This document shows, piece after piece, positions 3,179 to 35,255 of a stretch of DNA of 35,255 nt. The stretch spans positions 1 to 35,255 of the forward strand of contig CANPXC010000005.1 in assembly GCA_947585605.1 (NCBI GenBank). The letters are read 5' to 3'. The notes beneath the pieces are model-generated. The model searched no databases. It had not been told where the DNA came from and saw nothing but the letters and a program-made list of their open reading frames with translations. How positions within the stretch are numbered: position 1 is the first letter of the stretch; each line of letters opens with the position of its first letter. The DNA is from Candidatus Gastranaerophilales bacterium (GTDB taxonomy: Bacteria > Cyanobacteriota > Vampirovibrionia > Gastranaerophilales > Gastranaerophilaceae). A program made the translations under genes and the position numbers.

Positions 3179-5782
3179 ATGTTTAAACCTCCGGTAAAAT
3201 TAATCCTGCTAATAATTTTGTTATGCTTTAATTTTTCTTTATGTTTTGCTGATGATATTTATACTTATAATGAATTAATTGATAATTTAACAGAATCTTG
3301 TGAACAAAAGGATATAAATATACAAGAAGATTTAAAAGCTAATTGTTCCGTGGGTTGTCCTATGCCTTCTTCAGTAAATATAAACGGGAATAACCATACA
3401 ATAGACGGTAATGATTGCGGCGGATTTATTCTGGAAAACGGTAAAACTCTTAATATGAGCGCGGTAAAAGCTGAAAATTTCCACGGAACTCAAGGCGGAG
3501 TGGTTTATAATAACAATGGCTGCAGTGTTAACTCTTTAGATGGTGAATTTTGTCATAATTCCTCGGACGGTGACGGAGGAGTTATATATAATAATGCCAA
3601 TATAGGTAATATAAACGGAGAATTTTCCGATAATCATTCGGTTAATAACGGCGGAGCCGTTTATAATAATTCCTTAAGCCGAATAGAAAATGTAACGGGA
3701 AGTTTTAAAAATAATTCAACTACTGATTCTACTGGCGGTGCAATATGTAATATGGGAGAAGTAGGCAGGGTTAATGCATATTTTAACTCAAATCGTGCGG
3801 TTACGGGAAATGGCGGTGCTGTTTCAAATTATTCAAAAATAGATTATATTGAAGCGGATTTTAATTCAAATAATGCAAAAGAGTCCGGCGGTGCCGTTTT
3901 TAATTCGGGTTTAATAGGGTATTTAAAAGGTAATTTTAACGGAAACAGCTCTGAAGAAAATAATATGTATATGGGCGGCGGGGCAATAATGAACTATGGC
4001 TCGATTAATAAATTATCGGGCAAATTTGAAAATAATAAAACAAACGGTTACGGCGGAGCTATACATAATGCTTACGGCGTAATTAATCTTATATCTGATG
4101 AAGAAGATATTATTTTTAACGGAAATACCGATTCAACAGGTTCAAATGCAATATATAATGACAGCGGCGTTGTAAACCTAAATGCCGGAGGTTATGATAT
4201 TGTTATTAATGACGCTATAACCGGCGGGAATACTGATTACAGCCATGATTCAATCATAAATATAAATAATCCGGCAGTTTCTCAGTCCGGGCAAGGAAAT
4301 ATAGCAATAAATAATACGGTTGCGGATAATATTATAAATATGTACGGCGGTACATTAAAGTTGGGCTTAAATCCTAATGACGGCACGACGGGTGAATTTT
4401 TAAAAAGCGTTGATTTTAATTTTTACGGAGGAACGCTGGATTTAAGGGATGAAAATATACACAATACAAATCTTGGTAATTTAACCTTGTACTCCGACAT
4501 GAATTTAAAGCTGGACGGAAGCTTTGAAGAACCTTTATCCGATACTTTTACCGCAAATTCTTTTGTTTCAAACGGATTTAATATTAATATAACCGATATT
4601 TTATTAATGACAACCACAAATGAAAAGAGAATAGAAATATCACCAATCGGAGAAAATATAGATGAAACGGTAAGAAATTTAATAAAAGAAGCAATTATAT
4701 ATACAGGCGGTGATGTGATAAATTCTCCTATATATAAGTATAAATCTTGGTATGACAAAGAAAACGGTCTTATTATATTTGAAAGACTTGAAGGAACTGA
4801 TATTTATAATCCGTCTGTAAAAGCTGCCGCTGTAGCTGCACAATTGGGCGGATATTTATTTCAGTTAAACTCGTATCAGGAAGCATTCAGAAGAATGGAT
4901 ATGTATATGTTAATGACTAACAGACAAAGATTGACATATAAATATGCAAATAAATATGCTTCAATTGACTCTGCGAACGGGTATTATAATCCCTATTCGC
5001 CTTATGATAATAAATATGGCTGGATAAGCCCTTATAGTGTGTTTGAAAATGTCCCCTTGAAAAGAGGTTATAAGGTATCGAATATTTTATACGGTACATT
5101 TGCCGGGATAGAATCAGAATTAATTAATTTAAAAAAAGATTGGGATTTAATTTGGAGTCCGTATATAGGCTATAACGGTTCTCATCAGGCTTATCAAGGA
5201 ATTGATATATATCAAAACGGCGGTTCGTTCGGTGGTGTCGCAATGGCTTATAAGGGGAATTTATTTACCGGATTGACCTTGAATGCCGGAGTAAATAACT
5301 GTGAAGCCGATAATATGTATGGCAAAGATAATTTTTCCATGATTATGGGCGGTTTAGCAAGTAAAACAGGTTATAACTTTGAATTTAATGACGGCAGATT
5401 TATTCTGCAGCCTAATTATTTTATGTCTTATACATTTGTAAATACATTTGATTATAACAATGCCGCAGGAATTAGAATATCTTCAAGTCCGTTAAATGCG
5501 CTGCAAGTTGCGCCGGGTATCAGATTTATAGGCAATTTTGAAAACGGACTGCAGCCATATTCAACTTTATATATGGTATGGAATTTAATTGATAAATCTA
5601 AATTTAAAGCAAATGATGTTTCGCTTCCGCAATTAAGCATAAAACCGTTTGTATTTTATTCTGTAGGGGTAAGAAAAATATTCAATGAAAATTTTACGGG
5701 ATATTCACAAGTATATTTAGTAAACGGCGGCAGAAACGGTGTAGGTCTACAGGCAGGATTAAGGTTTAAAGTCGGGCATTAA
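3179..5782 (+). CDS. Autotransporter-like surface protein with Pmp-like GGA[I/V]xN repeats and C-terminal beta-barrel
   Basis: Signal peptide (LILLIILLCFNFSLCFA), about 8 repeats of the GGA[VI]xN ... GxFxxN type, and a C-terminal region with alternating aromatic/hydrophobic strands typical of autotransporter barrels. Confidence 0.75.
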   Translation: MFKPPVKLILLIILLCFNFSLCFADDIYTYNELIDNLTESCEQKDINIQEDLKANCSVGCPMPSSVNINGNNHTIDGNDCGGFILENGKTLNMSAVKAENFHGTQGGVVYNNNGCSVNSLDGEFCHNSSDGDGGVIYNNANIGNINGEFSDNHSVNNGGAVYNNSLSRIENVTGSFKNNSTTDSTGGAICNMGEVGRVNAYFNSNRAVTGNGGAVSNYSKIDYIEADFNSNNAKESGGAVFNSGLIGYLKGNFNGNSSEENNMYMGGGAIMNYGSINKLSGKFENNKTNGYGGAIHNAYGVINLISDEEDIIFNGNTDSTGSNAIYNDSGVVNLNAGGYDIVINDAITGGNTDYSHDSIININNPAVSQSGQGNIAINNTVADNIINMYGGTLKLGLNPNDGTTGEFLKSVDFNFYGGTLDLRDENIHNTNLGNLTLYSDMNLKLDGSFEEPLSDTFTANSFVSNGFNINITDILLMTTTNEKRIEISPIGENIDETVRNLIKEAIIYTGGDVINSPIYKYKSWYDKENGLIIFERLEGTDIYNPSVKAAAVAAQLGGYLFQLNSYQEAFRRMDMYMLMTNRQRLTYKYANKYASIDSANGYYNPYSPYDNKYGWISPYSVFENVPLKRGYKVSNILYGTFAGIESELINLKKDWDLIWSPYIGYNGSHQAYQGIDIYQNGGSFGGVAMAYKGNLFTGLTLNAGVNNCEADNMYGKDNFSMIMGGLASKTGYNFEFNDGRFILQPNYFMSYTFVNTFDYNNAAGIRISSSPLNALQVAPGIRFIGNFENGLQPYSTLYMVWNLIDKSKFKANDVSLPQLSIKPFVFYSVGVRKIFNENFTGYSQVYLVNGGRNGVGLQAGLRFKVGH

Positions 5783-7404: not shown

Positions 7405-10120
7405 TATGAATAAATTGGTCTTTGATAATGTGATTATAGAACAGAGTTCAAAAGATATTCCCAAAGGGGTAAAGTATGATTTTTGCGAAAATTTTAACTT
7501 GGTTTGCGGTGAAAATGAAACAGGAAAAAGTTCGCTAATGCTTTTTATCAAGGAAGGTTTATTTCGCATAAAAGGTGTTGATACCGGTAAAATTAATATG
7601 AGTTTAATCAGTGCTGATAATTCCGTACATATTAGGGCTGATATAAAAGATAACCGTTCTTTGGAACAAAGATGTAAACTTTTTTATGATGATAACTCCT
7701 CTTGCGGTTATGATTTTATTGAAAAAATGATTAACCCCAAATATTTTGAACAGGGATTTCATATTAATCTTGATGATTTAATGAAAATCCAAACAAAAGA
7801 AACCTCGCTGTTAGTGAATGTAATTAAAGATCCTTCGGGAGAAAAAATCCGTTCTTTCGTTGAAAAAATTAATAATGAAATTAATTCCGTTCTTTCAAAA
7901 GACGGAAAATTAAAAAAAGATTATAAAGAAATTAAAGATAAAATAGCTGAAAAAAATTTAAAAATAAATGAACTTTCCAAAAAAGAAGATGATTACATTA
8001 AAAATATTAATAGCGTAAAACTTTTGGAAGAACAATTAAAATCCGTTGTCAAACAAAAAGAATTTTTTAATATTCTGCTTCAAATAAAAGAATTAAAAGA
8101 CCGCTGTGAACTCTTAAACACCGAGAAGTTAAATTTGTTAAACAGTTTTAACTCTAAATTGTATGAAAATCAAAAAGATATAGGAAAAATTCATCAAGAC
8201 TGCGGGGTATATAATTTAAATAATGAAAATATAAAAAGAAATTGTAATTCTATTGAAGAATATAAAAATAAAATTTTGGAACAAAAAGCCGTTTTGGCGT
8301 CTGTTACTGATTGTGATATGAAGGAGGAAACCATAAATCAGTTTGTAATAGATGTTGAAAAAAATAAAAAGGTTGAAGATTACAGCAATCAAATTAATGA
8401 AATGAAGCAGGAAATCAAGGCTAAGAATATAAAAATTGATGACAGTAATGACACTATTTTAAAAATTGAAACCGAGCTTGAAAGTCTTAATAAAGAATTA
8501 AATAATAACACAAACATATCCGAAGCGGAAAAATTATACAAAGATATAGAAGAAGGTTTAAAACAATTTTATTTTATTTCTTCCGAAATAAATAAATATG
8601 AGCCTTTGGAAAAATCAAGTAAAAACAACGGAATTACGCTAATAATGTGTATTTTGGCTGTTATATTATCGGGCTTGTGCGGATTTTGTTTTTATAAACA
8701 AATATATATACCTGCATTTATAAGTATTTTGGGAATTTGTTTAATAATATTGTCATTTTTTATCTTGAAAACAAATAATAATACTTCAAATAAAAATGAA
8801 ATATTACATCTGAAAAATCAGCAGAAGGATATATTAAATTCATTGGTCAATTCGGTAAAAGATATTAATAACGAAATTGAAAAAGTTGATTATACTTATA
8901 TTCCGTCAAAGCTTGAGAGTATAAAACAGGAAATATATTTAAAAATGCAGGAAAATAAAAAACTGCTGGAAAATATTAAAAAATTGCAAACCGAAAAAAA
9001 TTACAATGAAACAAAACTTACAAAAGAAAAAGATACTTGTGAACAAATAAATAAAAATATAAATGAACTAAATGCCAGGATTAATGATTTAATTGATAAA
9101 AATATTTTTAATTGTGATATTAAACCCGAAAAATATCTTGAAACAATAGAGATAATAAAGTCTTTAAAAAACGATATAAAAAATTTAAATTCACTGGAAA
9201 ATGAAAATCAAAATGCACTTAGTGTAAATAAAGAAATCTCGGAATATTTAAGAAACTTTTTAATGGTAAATGAAATTCCCGTAACCATAAGTGAAAGAGC
9301 GGATGAAACCATAAATAACATTGAAGATTATAACAGTGAAAACAATAAAATAAAAAAGGATATTGAAATAAAAGAGTGTGAAATAAAAACAATAAGCGAA
9401 AAACTTGAGAATTTAGAAAATTTAAAAGACACTCTGATAAAGAATTATAATTTTAATCCGTCTCTTTACGATATAAAATCGGCAATAGAGGAGTTAAATA
9501 TCGAAAAAGAAACAAAATTAAATCAAAAAAAGGAAGCCGAATATCAAAAACGCGATTTGGAAAAATTTGAAGGTTTATCCGATTTAAAGCTTGAAAGAAA
9601 TATATTAACGGATGAATACAGAAAAACTATAAAAAAACTGATAATTAATAAAATGACAATAATGGCAATAGAAAAAGCGAAATCGGAATTTGATAAAACA
9701 CAGCCGGATTTAATTAATGCGCAAAAATATTTGTCAATTTTAACTGGCGGAAAATATAATAAAATCAATTTGGAACTTCAGGAAATTGATAATGAAGAAG
9801 GAACAAAAAATAAAAAATGGGAGGAGTTAAGCCGAGGAACAAAAGAACAGTTATATTTAGCTTTAAAACTCGGATATGCTTCAAATTATACAAAAGATAA
9901 AACGACATTGGAGGATAACGGAAAACCGGCTCTGCCTTTAATAATAGATGATGCTTTTGTAAATTTTGATAAAAACAGAACCGTCGGTGCTTTAAAATGT
10001 TTGTTTGAATTTTCAAAGACAAACCAAGTAATCTTCTTTACTTGTCATCGGGAAGAAATAAAAAAAATAATCCAAGATTTATTTAATCAGGAAACAAATT
10101 ATAAAATAATTGATATGTAA
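7379..10120 (+). CDS. SbcC/YhaN-like AAA ATPase with long coiled coil (start may be ATG at 7406)
   Basis: Walker A GENETGKSS, long Lys/Glu/Asn-rich coiled coils, internal hydrophobic hairpin, C-terminal LIIDDAFVNFDKNR Walker B; adjacent to the YhaO-like gene. Confidence 0.85.
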   Translation: MLTKERLINMNKLVFDNVIIEQSSKDIPKGVKYDFCENFNLVCGENETGKSSLMLFIKEGLFRIKGVDTGKINMSLISADNSVHIRADIKDNRSLEQRCKLFYDDNSSCGYDFIEKMINPKYFEQGFHINLDDLMKIQTKETSLLVNVIKDPSGEKIRSFVEKINNEINSVLSKDGKLKKDYKEIKDKIAEKNLKINELSKKEDDYIKNINSVKLLEEQLKSVVKQKEFFNILLQIKELKDRCELLNTEKLNLLNSFNSKLYENQKDIGKIHQDCGVYNLNNENIKRNCNSIEEYKNKILEQKAVLASVTDCDMKEETINQFVIDVEKNKKVEDYSNQINEMKQEIKAKNIKIDDSNDTILKIETELESLNKELNNNTNISEAEKLYKDIEEGLKQFYFISSEINKYEPLEKSSKNNGITLIMCILAVILSGLCGFCFYKQIYIPAFISILGICLIILSFFILKTNNNTSNKNEILHLKNQQKDILNSLVNSVKDINNEIEKVDYTYIPSKLESIKQEIYLKMQENKKLLENIKKLQTEKNYNETKLTKEKDTCEQINKNINELNARINDLIDKNIFNCDIKPEKYLETIEIIKSLKNDIKNLNSLENENQNALSVNKEISEYLRNFLMVNEIPVTISERADETINNIEDYNSENNKIKKDIEIKECEIKTISEKLENLENLKDTLIKNYNFNPSLYDIKSAIEELNIEKETKLNQKKEAEYQKRDLEKFEGLSDLKLERNILTDEYRKTIKKLIINKMTIMAIEKAKSEFDKTQPDLINAQKYLSILTGGKYNKINLELQEIDNEEGTKNKKWEELSRGTKEQLYLALKLGYASNYTKDKTTLEDNGKPALPLIIDDAFVNFDKNRTVGALKCLFEFSKTNQVIFFTCHREEIKKIIQDLFNQETNYKIIDM

Positions 10121-33738: not shown

Positions 33739-34458
33739 ATGAATGAAATTAAAATAATAACTTCTGACGGTGTAAAAATTGCTGTCAATCATTACGAAAA
33801 TAATAGCGAAAGCGTAATAATACTTGCTCCTGGGTGGTTTATGACAAAGGACAGTAAATCATTTAAAGAGATGAGTAAAGTGTTCAGCCAATATTGCAGC
33901 GTAATGGCTATGGATTTTCGCGGGCATGGCAAAAGCGGCGGATTTTATACATTTACAAGCAAAGAAGAAAATGATTTAAAATCGGTAATTGAATACGCGC
34001 AAAAAAAGTATAAAAAAATATATTTAATGGGATTTTCCTTAGGGGCGGCAGTGTCGTTAATAGTATGCTCCGAACTTGATGTTATAGAAAAATTAATAGT
34101 AGTAAGCGCGCCGACTTGTTTTGAAAAAATAGAAAATAAGATGTGGAAAAAGGAAGCGTGGATACCGACATTACAAAAGTGTGAATTAAAAAGGTGGTTC
34201 TCAATTCGGCCTTCAATCAAGGTAAGCTCAAAAGTAAAACCTATAGATATAGTAGAGAAAGTAAAATGCCCCACATTGTTTTTGGCGGGAGAAAAAGATC
34301 CCACGGTATGCAGCTGGCATACTCAAACTTTATTTACCAAAGCCGTATGTAAAAAGAAGTATGAACTTTTTGAAAACTGCTGCCATGCCGAAGATTTATT
34401 TATACAAAATCGAAAAAAATTCATTGAAATCTGTACTGAATGGCTTTTTCAATCCTAA
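33739..34458 (+). CDS. Alpha/beta hydrolase
   Basis: LAPGWFMTKDS, FRGHGKSGG, GFSLGAAVS nucleophile elbow, LFLAGEKDPTV, CCHAEDLF. Confidence 0.85.
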   Translation: MNEIKIITSDGVKIAVNHYENNSESVIILAPGWFMTKDSKSFKEMSKVFSQYCSVMAMDFRGHGKSGGFYTFTSKEENDLKSVIEYAQKKYKKIYLMGFSLGAAVSLIVCSELDVIEKLIVVSAPTCFEKIENKMWKKEAWIPTLQKCELKRWFSIRPSIKVSSKVKPIDIVEKVKCPTLFLAGEKDPTVCSWHTQTLFTKAVCKKKYELFENCCHAEDLFIQNRKKFIEICTEWLFQS

Positions 34459-34483
34459 TTAACTTATATAATGTATAAAAATT

Positions 34484-34492
34484 TGATATACT
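34484..34492 (+). promoter_or_regulatory. Candidate extended -10 promoter for cas9
   Basis: TGATATACT, 28 nt before the ATG at 34521; weak -35; AGGGAGAATAT ribosome-binding site. Confidence 0.35.
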
Positions 34493-34520
34493 AAATAAAA
34501 AGTAACTTTAGGGAGAATAT

Positions 34521-35255
34521 ATGAATAAGATTTTTGCGTTTGATATGGGAAAAGCCAGTATTGGCTACTGTGTAAGAGAAAATAATGAAATAAGAGAACT
34601 TGGTTCAATAATAATAGATAAAGACCATGCCACGGTTGCCGATAACAGAGCAAGAAGAAGGGTAATGAGAACTTTAAAATCTCATAAGGCAAGAGAAAAA
34701 TGGTTTGATGAACTTTGGCAGAGCCATGGGCTTTGTATTTTAGATAAAAACGATGAAAAATTTAAAAGAGAATTTGCAAACAGAAATGATAATACAATTT
34801 ATAATTCCACTCTGTTAAGAATTGCACTAATACAGGGCAGGAAACTTGAAGAATGGCAGATATATAAAGCATTACATAATGCGTTTCAACGCAGAGGTTA
34901 TGACATAAATATTGCTTGGGCAAACGGAACGGACGATGAAAAAGAAAATGAAAAAGCCGTTAAAAAATATTGCTGTATAGATGGTGCAGATATTATAAAT
35001 TCAGATGAATATAAATATCCTTGTTATTATGACGCTGTACTTTTAGGTTTATGGAATGAAAATAATCCTTATGAATTAAAAAGAGCAATAGGAATAGCGC
35101 CGACAAAAGTAAGAACAACAGGCAGAGTTGCACCAAGAGAACTTGTAGTAAAAGAATTGACAAAATTATGGGAGGAAACAAAAAAACAGCTTCCGCAATT
35201 GGAAAAAATATCCGTTGAAGAATTTTTATACGGTGATTACAGAGAAGCATACGGG
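34521..35255 (+). CDS. cas9: Cas9-family RNA-guided endonuclease, N-terminal 245 aa, truncated by the window edge
   Basis: Open reading frame to the last base. RuvC-I motif IFAFDMGKASIGYCVRE, Arg-rich bridge-helix-like segment NRARRRVMRTLKSHKAREKWFDELW, RRGY motif (ALHNAFQRRGYDINIAW), then VRTTGRVAPRELVVKELTKLWEETKKQLP. Absent from the ORF track because no stop lies in the window. Confidence 0.88.
   Translation, partial: MNKIFAFDMGKASIGYCVRENNEIRELGSIIIDKDHATVADNRARRRVMRTLKSHKAREKWFDELWQSHGLCILDKNDEKFKREFANRNDNTIYNSTLLRIALIQGRKLEEWQIYKALHNAFQRRGYDINIAWANGTDDEKENEKAVKKYCCIDGADIINSDEYKYPCYYDAVLLGLWNENNPYELKRAIGIAPTKVRTTGRVAPRELVVKELTKLWEETKKQLPQLEKISVEEFLYGDYREAYG

What the first reader, a model, noticed from the sequence alone, without database searches (positions are those of the whole stretch)
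34521..35255. Divergent Cas9 gene starting at the right edge, missed by the ORF track
The open frame encodes a recognisable Cas9 N-terminus beginning directly at RuvC-I (MNKIFAFDMGKASIGYCVRE). This argues against IscB, which normally has an N-terminal PLMP domain. It has an Arg-rich bridge helix, the conserved RRG[FY] motif and the REC-entry R..PR..v..EL..lw pattern. The sequence between RuvC-I and the bridge helix (LGSIIIDKDHATVADNRARRR) lacks the common G.RIF/FP pattern of many Cas9s, so the protein looks divergent. It follows an alpha/beta hydrolase and has only a 62-nt upstream gap, so any cas1/cas2, repeat array and tracrRNA should lie downstream, outside the window. A new subtype or PAM is possible, but this fragment cannot show it.
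Basis: partly seen in the sequence, partly recalled or inferred. Interest (0 to 1): 0.85.

Follow-up and report, generated by a model that had tools for sequence, protein, structure and literature searches.

The report
Divergent gut-bacterial Cas9, cut by contig
The window's right edge carries the first quarter of a real Cas9 gene from an uncultured gut bacterium (Gastranaerophilales-like); the matching guide array and tracrRNA were found on another contig of the same genome, so this is a conventional CRISPR immune system with an unusually divergent Cas9 whose close relatives are already deposited but apparently untested.

Summary
34521-35255 (+) is the first 245 codons of a cas9 gene that runs off the end of the contig; the window is a whole contig (C5) of a 172-contig, 84% complete MAG. 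Relatives are Ca. Gastranaerophilales. The fragment scores 298 bits against NCBIfam Cas9d; relatives 85-93% identical to it are complete ~1005-aa Cas9s with HNH and RuvC-I/II/III. Their loci read cas9-cas1-cas2-tracrRNA-array, without cas4 or csn2. The other half of this genome's locus is on contig C62: end of cas2, a tracrRNA whose anti-repeat covaries with the repeat across relatives, 13 repeats with 12 spacers, then groES-groEL. In about 20 congeners the window's hydrolase is followed directly by groES-groEL, so C5 and C62 flank one CRISPR locus inserted there; about 3.5 kb (rest of cas9, cas1, most of cas2) is missing from the assembly. Mechanism: RNA-guided DNA cleavage, inferred from homology. 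Subtype is unsettled: NCBI calls the family Cas9d, but published II-D traits (cas4, Zn ribbons, likeness to Cas9d-MG34) are not met; gene content is II-C-like. PAM undetermined. New member of a known kind; moderate interest.

The parts
34482..34492 (+). probable extended -10 promoter element (TTTGATATACT) of cas9
   Evidence: same element (TTTGTTATACT) upstream of cas9 in L056, L058, L059, L057, L045 although the genes further upstream differ; inference from consensus
34510..34515 (+). probable ribosome-binding site AGGGAG of cas9
   Evidence: sequence; conserved in close relatives
34521..35255 (+). cas9 (NCBIfam Cas9d family), first 245 codons, cut by the contig end: RuvC-I, bridge helix, start of REC lobe
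   Evidence: NF049971 298.5 bits E 1.6e-88, TIGR01865 71.5 bits; 93% identity to full-length L056
34521..34580 (+). RuvC-I motif; D8 is the presumed catalytic aspartate
   Evidence: D8 invariant in 12 aligned rows; function by homology
34641..34706 (+). Arg-rich bridge helix (about NRARRRVMRTLKSHKAREKWF)
   Evidence: alignment with relatives and sequence; limits approximate
33739..34458 (+). left flank, not part of the system: alpha/beta hydrolase, next to groES-groEL in congeners that lack the insertion
   Evidence: Pfam Hydrolase_4; present in 35 of 40 same-genus genomes, followed by groES-groEL in about 20

Best explanation
The window ends in the 5' quarter of cas9 of a type II CRISPR-Cas locus in a gut bacterium related to Ca. 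Gastranaerophilales. The whole locus sits between an alpha/beta hydrolase gene and groES-groEL, and the assembly breaks it into C5 (the window) and C62, with about 3.5 kb missing. The cas genes run cas9-cas1-cas2 from a promoter just upstream of cas9. On the opposite strand the array is transcribed (each repeat ends in an extended -10, TGTTATAAT), as is a tracrRNA lying between cas2 and the array. The anti-repeat pairs with the repeat, host RNase III trims the duplex, and Cas9 uses the ~30-nt spacer to find matching invader DNA and cuts it with HNH and RuvC. Shown: gene, domain content and order in relatives, own array and tracrRNA with covariation, empty site, RNase III gene. Inferred: expression, processing, cleavage, PAM.
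For: Cas9 profile hits; complete relatives with HNH_4 and full-length Cas9d model match, 1036 bits; cas9-cas1-cas2-array order in L058, L068, L069, G087 with type II Cas1 and Cas2 families in L058; own contig C62 with cas2 end, 13 repeats and tracrRNA; repeat/anti-repeat covariation: 8 pairs with changes on both sides, 0/500 shuffles, slid controls 32-48% paired against 95.7%; second tracrRNA stem with 4 covarying pairs; empty hydrolase-groES site in congeners; RNase III in own genome; extended -10 in the repeat as described for type II-C systems (PMC7038990).
Against: Codons 246 to the end of this cas9, cas1 and most of cas2 are absent from the assembly, so an intact gene in this strain is inferred. 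No convincing protospacer was found in phages, IMG/VR or relatives, so targeting is unproven. The AlphaFold model of a relative is poor (pLDDT 63, pTM 0.34).
Confidence: 0.93

Rival explanations
1. A Cas9 remnant: the gene is truncated or decayed in this strain and the array is no longer served.
For: Short cas9 N-terminal pieces occur in some relatives (G032:C28 83 aa, G070:C8, G011:C139); the rest of cas9 and cas1 are not in the assembly.
Against: The frame is open to the contig edge with 93% identity to intact genes; cas2 end, tracrRNA and 12 different spacers are intact on C62; three other genomes also break inside cas9 at contig ends (G033, G024, G010), so assembly breakage here is common.
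Confidence: 0.06
2. A stand-alone RuvC-HNH nuclease of the IscB/HEARO kind rather than a CRISPR Cas9.
For: Divergent N-terminus; weak IscB model hits in relatives (22-28 bits).
Against: IscB model far below its cut-off of 175; relatives are about 1005 aa and next to cas1, cas2, array and tracrRNA; own C62 carries an array.
Confidence: 0.01

Closest known systems
NCBIfam NF049971 Cas9d family; deposited Gastranaerophilales Cas9s (e.g. CANPYB010000046.1, CANQNW010000001.1)
   Same: 93% and 91% identity over the fragment; full-length model match of about 1036 bits in those relatives; cas9-cas1-cas2-tracrRNA-array in L058
   Different: the genomic site (hydrolase/groES here; TPR, ABC permease, recF-like or other neighbours elsewhere) and the spacers
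Type II-C CRISPR-Cas (NmeCas9, GeoCas9, ThermoCas9, CcCas9)
   Same: cas9-cas1-cas2 only, extended -10 at the repeat's 3' end, array opposite to the cas genes, closest solved structures by sequence and by the weak model
   Different: Cas9 forms a separate clade from seven ordinary Cas9s; G.RIF pattern replaced by LGSIIIDKDH; detectable sequence similarity largely confined to RuvC-II/HNH/RuvC-III
Type II-D, Cas9d-MG34-1 (PDB 9AUF, 8W2Z, 8W2S) and archaeal II-C2 Cas9s
   Same: name given by NCBI; divergent Cas9
   Different: no cas4, no CxxC Zn ribbons (one CxxC in one relative), about 1005 aa against 747 aa for MG34-1, only an HNH match of about 38 bits to MG34-1

Membership tests
Cas9 (type II effector) | RuvC-I and Arg-rich bridge helix at the N-terminus | tested here: met
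Cas9 (type II effector) | HNH and RuvC-II/III in the same protein | tested here: inconclusive
   not in the window (contig ends) or elsewhere in G000; met in 85-93% identical relatives
Type II CRISPR-Cas | CRISPR array and tracrRNA | tested here: met
   own contig C62: 13 repeats, tracrRNA with covarying anti-repeat; adjacency to the window from the empty site
Type II CRISPR-Cas | cas1 and cas2 | tested here: inconclusive
   cas2 end on C62; cas1 not in the assembly, expected in the gap; both present in relatives
NCBIfam Cas9d (NF049971) | model score over 375 bits | tested here: inconclusive
   fragment 298.5 bits over 245 aa; full-length relatives of the same genus 965-1103 bits
Published subtype II-D (PMC12669027, PMC9755519) | cas4 with cas1 and cas2 | tested here: not met
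   no cas4 between cas9 and array in L058, L068, L069, G087
Published subtype II-D (PMC12669027, PMC9755519) | Zn-binding ribbons in the recognition region and near RuvC-II | tested here: not met
   tested as CxxC pairs: none in 19 of 20 clade members, one single CxxC in L065; non-canonical Zn sites not excluded
Published subtype II-D (PMC12669027, PMC9755519) | Cas9 groups with archaeal and MG34 Cas9d | tested here: inconclusive
   MG34-1 chains score about 38 bits against about 101 for Nme/GeoCas9; archaeal sequences could not be fetched for a tree
Subtype II-C | cas9, cas1, cas2 only (no csn2, no cas4) | tested here: met
   in relatives; not testable in the gap of this genome
Subtype II-C | Cas9 within the II-C part of the Cas9 tree | tested here: inconclusive
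   clade of 20 is separated from 7 ordinary Cas9s, 100/100, long branches; few references
IscB | N-terminal PLMP domain and IscB model over cut-off | tested here: not met
   protein starts at RuvC-I; IscB model 22-28 bits in relatives, cut-off 175

The most novel reading that the evidence does not exclude
The NF049971 clade is a type II lineage of its own, neither II-C nor published II-D, with its own tracrRNA fold and PAM, spread horizontally among gut Gastranaerophilales and relatives (also Termititenax and Verrucomicrobia) and never biochemically tested.
Probability: 0.3. Interest if true: 0.55.

Novelty: new member of a known kind. Interest (0 to 1): 0.4.

Why it matters
It shows a ~1005-aa divergent Cas9 family with complete loci, arrays and a covariation-supported tracrRNA in uncultured gut bacteria, enough to design guide RNAs and test a Cas9 lineage for which no experimental work was found in the papers searched. 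It also shows that the NCBI label Cas9d and the published definition of subtype II-D do not coincide for these loci. The empty hydrolase-groES site documents gain of a whole type II locus.

Tried and rejected
Overlap of the contig end with another contig: none. C122 match: 58 bases inside a long coiled-coil-like gene, chance. C42 HNH match: a stand-alone HNH protein common in the genus. Protospacers: INPHARED phages with 48 own and related spacers, six IMG/VR patterns (the first was mistyped and repeated), two spacer sets against 98 relatives. Only a few weak non-array matches; three with 2-3 mismatches have A-rich 3' flanks (AAAAAATAAC, AGAAAACAAT, AAAAAGTTAA), but the genomes are AT-rich, so no PAM is claimed. 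Structure prediction was poor, so the Foldseek ranking is only supportive. Rfam has no match to the tracrRNA or to the flanks. The single-sequence fold of the tracrRNA region is not unusual (z -0.86); the evidence is the covariation. Papers on Gastranaerophilales or Melainabacteria Cas9: none relevant.

Full report
Observation. The window is the complete contig C5 of a genome held as G000 (172 contigs, 1.79 Mb, 84% complete). At its right end, 34521-35255 (+), an ATG-started frame of 245 codons runs off the contig without a stop. NCBIfam scores it 298.5 bits (E 1.6e-88) for Cas9d and 71.5 bits for the generic Cas9 model; both are under whole-protein cut-offs, as expected when three quarters of the protein is missing. 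PADLOC Cas9 models agree. Pfam has no significant match to the fragment, and in a full-length relative it finds only the HNH part.

What organism. Named relatives of the fragment are MAGs of Candidatus Gastranaerophilales (several from the 'Lapin' series), at 93, 91, 91 and 90% identity for the nearest, then Ca. Termititenax (52%) and Verrucomicrobia (34%). G000 itself is unnamed, so its taxonomy is an inference from these.

The complete protein in relatives. Fifteen genomes of the genus, family and order hold uninterrupted genes of about 1000-1020 aa matching the Cas9d model from end to end at 965-1103 bits. L058 (91% identical over the fragment) has HNH_4, and the alignment of 12 rows keeps D8, E501, H581, N604, H728 and D731, which I assign as RuvC and HNH catalytic positions by homology. 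Ordinary Cas9s score 568-788 bits on TIGR01865 and 126-151 on the Cas9d model, while members of this family do the reverse. A maximum-likelihood tree separates 20 members of the family from 7 ordinary Cas9s with 100/100 support, but branches are long and references few.

The locus. In L058 the order is cas9, cas1, cas2, a 173-nt spacer, then the array, with no cas4 or csn2; L068, L069 and G087 are alike in gene order. L058 Cas1 matches the type II Cas1 model (155.8 bits, cut-off 120) and Cas2 the general model. Repeats are 36 nt (GTTTTGATTTTCTCTTAATTTAAAATATGTTATAAT in this genus) with 27-31-nt spacers.

The other half of this genome's own locus. A search of G000 with the L058 locus hit C5 and, on C62, the end of cas2 and an array. 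C62 is 10,566 bases and its match begins at its very last base: the last 19 codons of cas2, the intergenic spacer, 13 repeats with 12 spacers, a short flank, then groES and groEL. By L058 coordinates the missing stretch is about 3.5 kb. No Cas1 is found anywhere in G000, and the only other Cas9d-model hit is a stand-alone HNH protein.

Adjacency: the empty site. The window's alpha/beta hydrolase is present in 35 of 40 same-genus genomes. In about 20 of them it is followed, after roughly 90 bp, by groES and groEL. In G000 it is followed by cas9, while groES-groEL follow the array on C62; the native groES upstream sequence resumes just to the right of the array flank. The simplest reading is one CRISPR locus inserted between hydrolase and groES. 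The nearest Cas9 relatives sit elsewhere (next to a TPR gene, ABC permeases, a recF-like gene, a HAD-like gene and others), and G027, whose Cas9 is 93% identical, has the empty hydrolase-groES site. The locus has therefore changed place between genomes. The mechanism of insertion was not determined.

tracrRNA and transcription. On the strand opposite to the cas genes, the cas2-array spacer contains an anti-repeat pairing with repeat positions 1-30 at -20 to -43 kcal/mol. Over eight distinct repeat/anti-repeat pairs, 95.7% of cells pair, 8 pairs change on both sides, and no shuffle of 500 reaches this; sliding the partner by 1-3 drops pairing to 32-48%. A second stem in the tail (GGAGAAU/AUUCUCC) has 4 of 7 pairs with changes on both sides. 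Almost every repeat variant in the genus ends in TGTTATAAT, an extended -10; in the type II-C systems of C. cellulolyticum and N. meningitidis such repeat-borne promoters are described (PMC7038990). The cas9 gene has its own conserved upstream element. RNase III, which type II systems use for guide processing, is encoded on C14.

Subtype. NCBI names the family Cas9d. The 2025 classification defines II-D by a deep Cas9d branch and loci with cas1, cas2 and cas4 (PMC12669027); PMC9755519 adds Zn-ribbon motifs. cas4 and CxxC pairs are absent here, and the solved Cas9d-MG34-1 chains (9AUF, 8W2Z, 8W2S) match only through HNH at about 38 bits, against about 101 bits for NmeCas9 and GeoCas9. PMC11706934 describes II-D as lacking cas1, cas2 and cas4 altogether, so the published descriptions themselves differ. 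Gene content and array orientation look II-C-like. I do not file it as II-D or II-C; it belongs to the NCBI Cas9d family and is a type II system.

Targets. No phage, viral-contig or clear prophage target was found; three weak matches have A-rich 3' flanks and are not enough for a PAM.

Verdict. A real, divergent Cas9 in an otherwise conventional type II locus, cut by assembly. It is already represented by many deposited homologues and is apparently uncharacterised experimentally in the open papers I could search.

Noticed in passing
window 33739-34520; C62 (L078) 8899-9480: Empty site: in about 20 congeners the hydrolase is followed directly by groES-groEL; in this genome the CRISPR locus is inserted between them.
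   Followed up: yes
L058 15799-15990; L078 9324-9480: Right of the array in L058 an ORF for a 27-aa hydrophobic peptide (MEQFNLSLILILLILFIIKSSPYRNKR) followed by a conserved stretch, with a truncated copy in C62; resembles a type I toxin-antitoxin remnant. No Rfam match in C62; similar pieces on C2 and C79.
   Followed up: partly
L006 (G000:C42 5885-9073), 1294-1806: Stand-alone ~170-aa HNH protein, matched by the Cas9d model's HNH part, present in most genomes of the genus.
   Followed up: no
G032:C28 9271-9495; G070:C8 15-230; G011:C139 11458-11685: Short frames of 83-105 aa matching only the N-terminus of Cas9d: apparent cas9 remnants or other contig-end fragments.
   Followed up: no
L078 (own C62) spacers; L058, L044 (G037) and L038 (G001) arrays: Pairs of spacers that look like variants of the same target (e.g. 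own TTCACGTCGGAGAATATGGAGAAAAAACCA and G001 CATGTTGGTGAGTATGGAGAGAAAACCA), suggesting repeated sampling of one conserved target gene.
   Followed up: partly
window 3179-5782: Large secreted repeat protein (867 aa) with a C-terminal part that looks like an outer-membrane beta-barrel (autotransporter-like); judged from sequence only.
   Followed up: no
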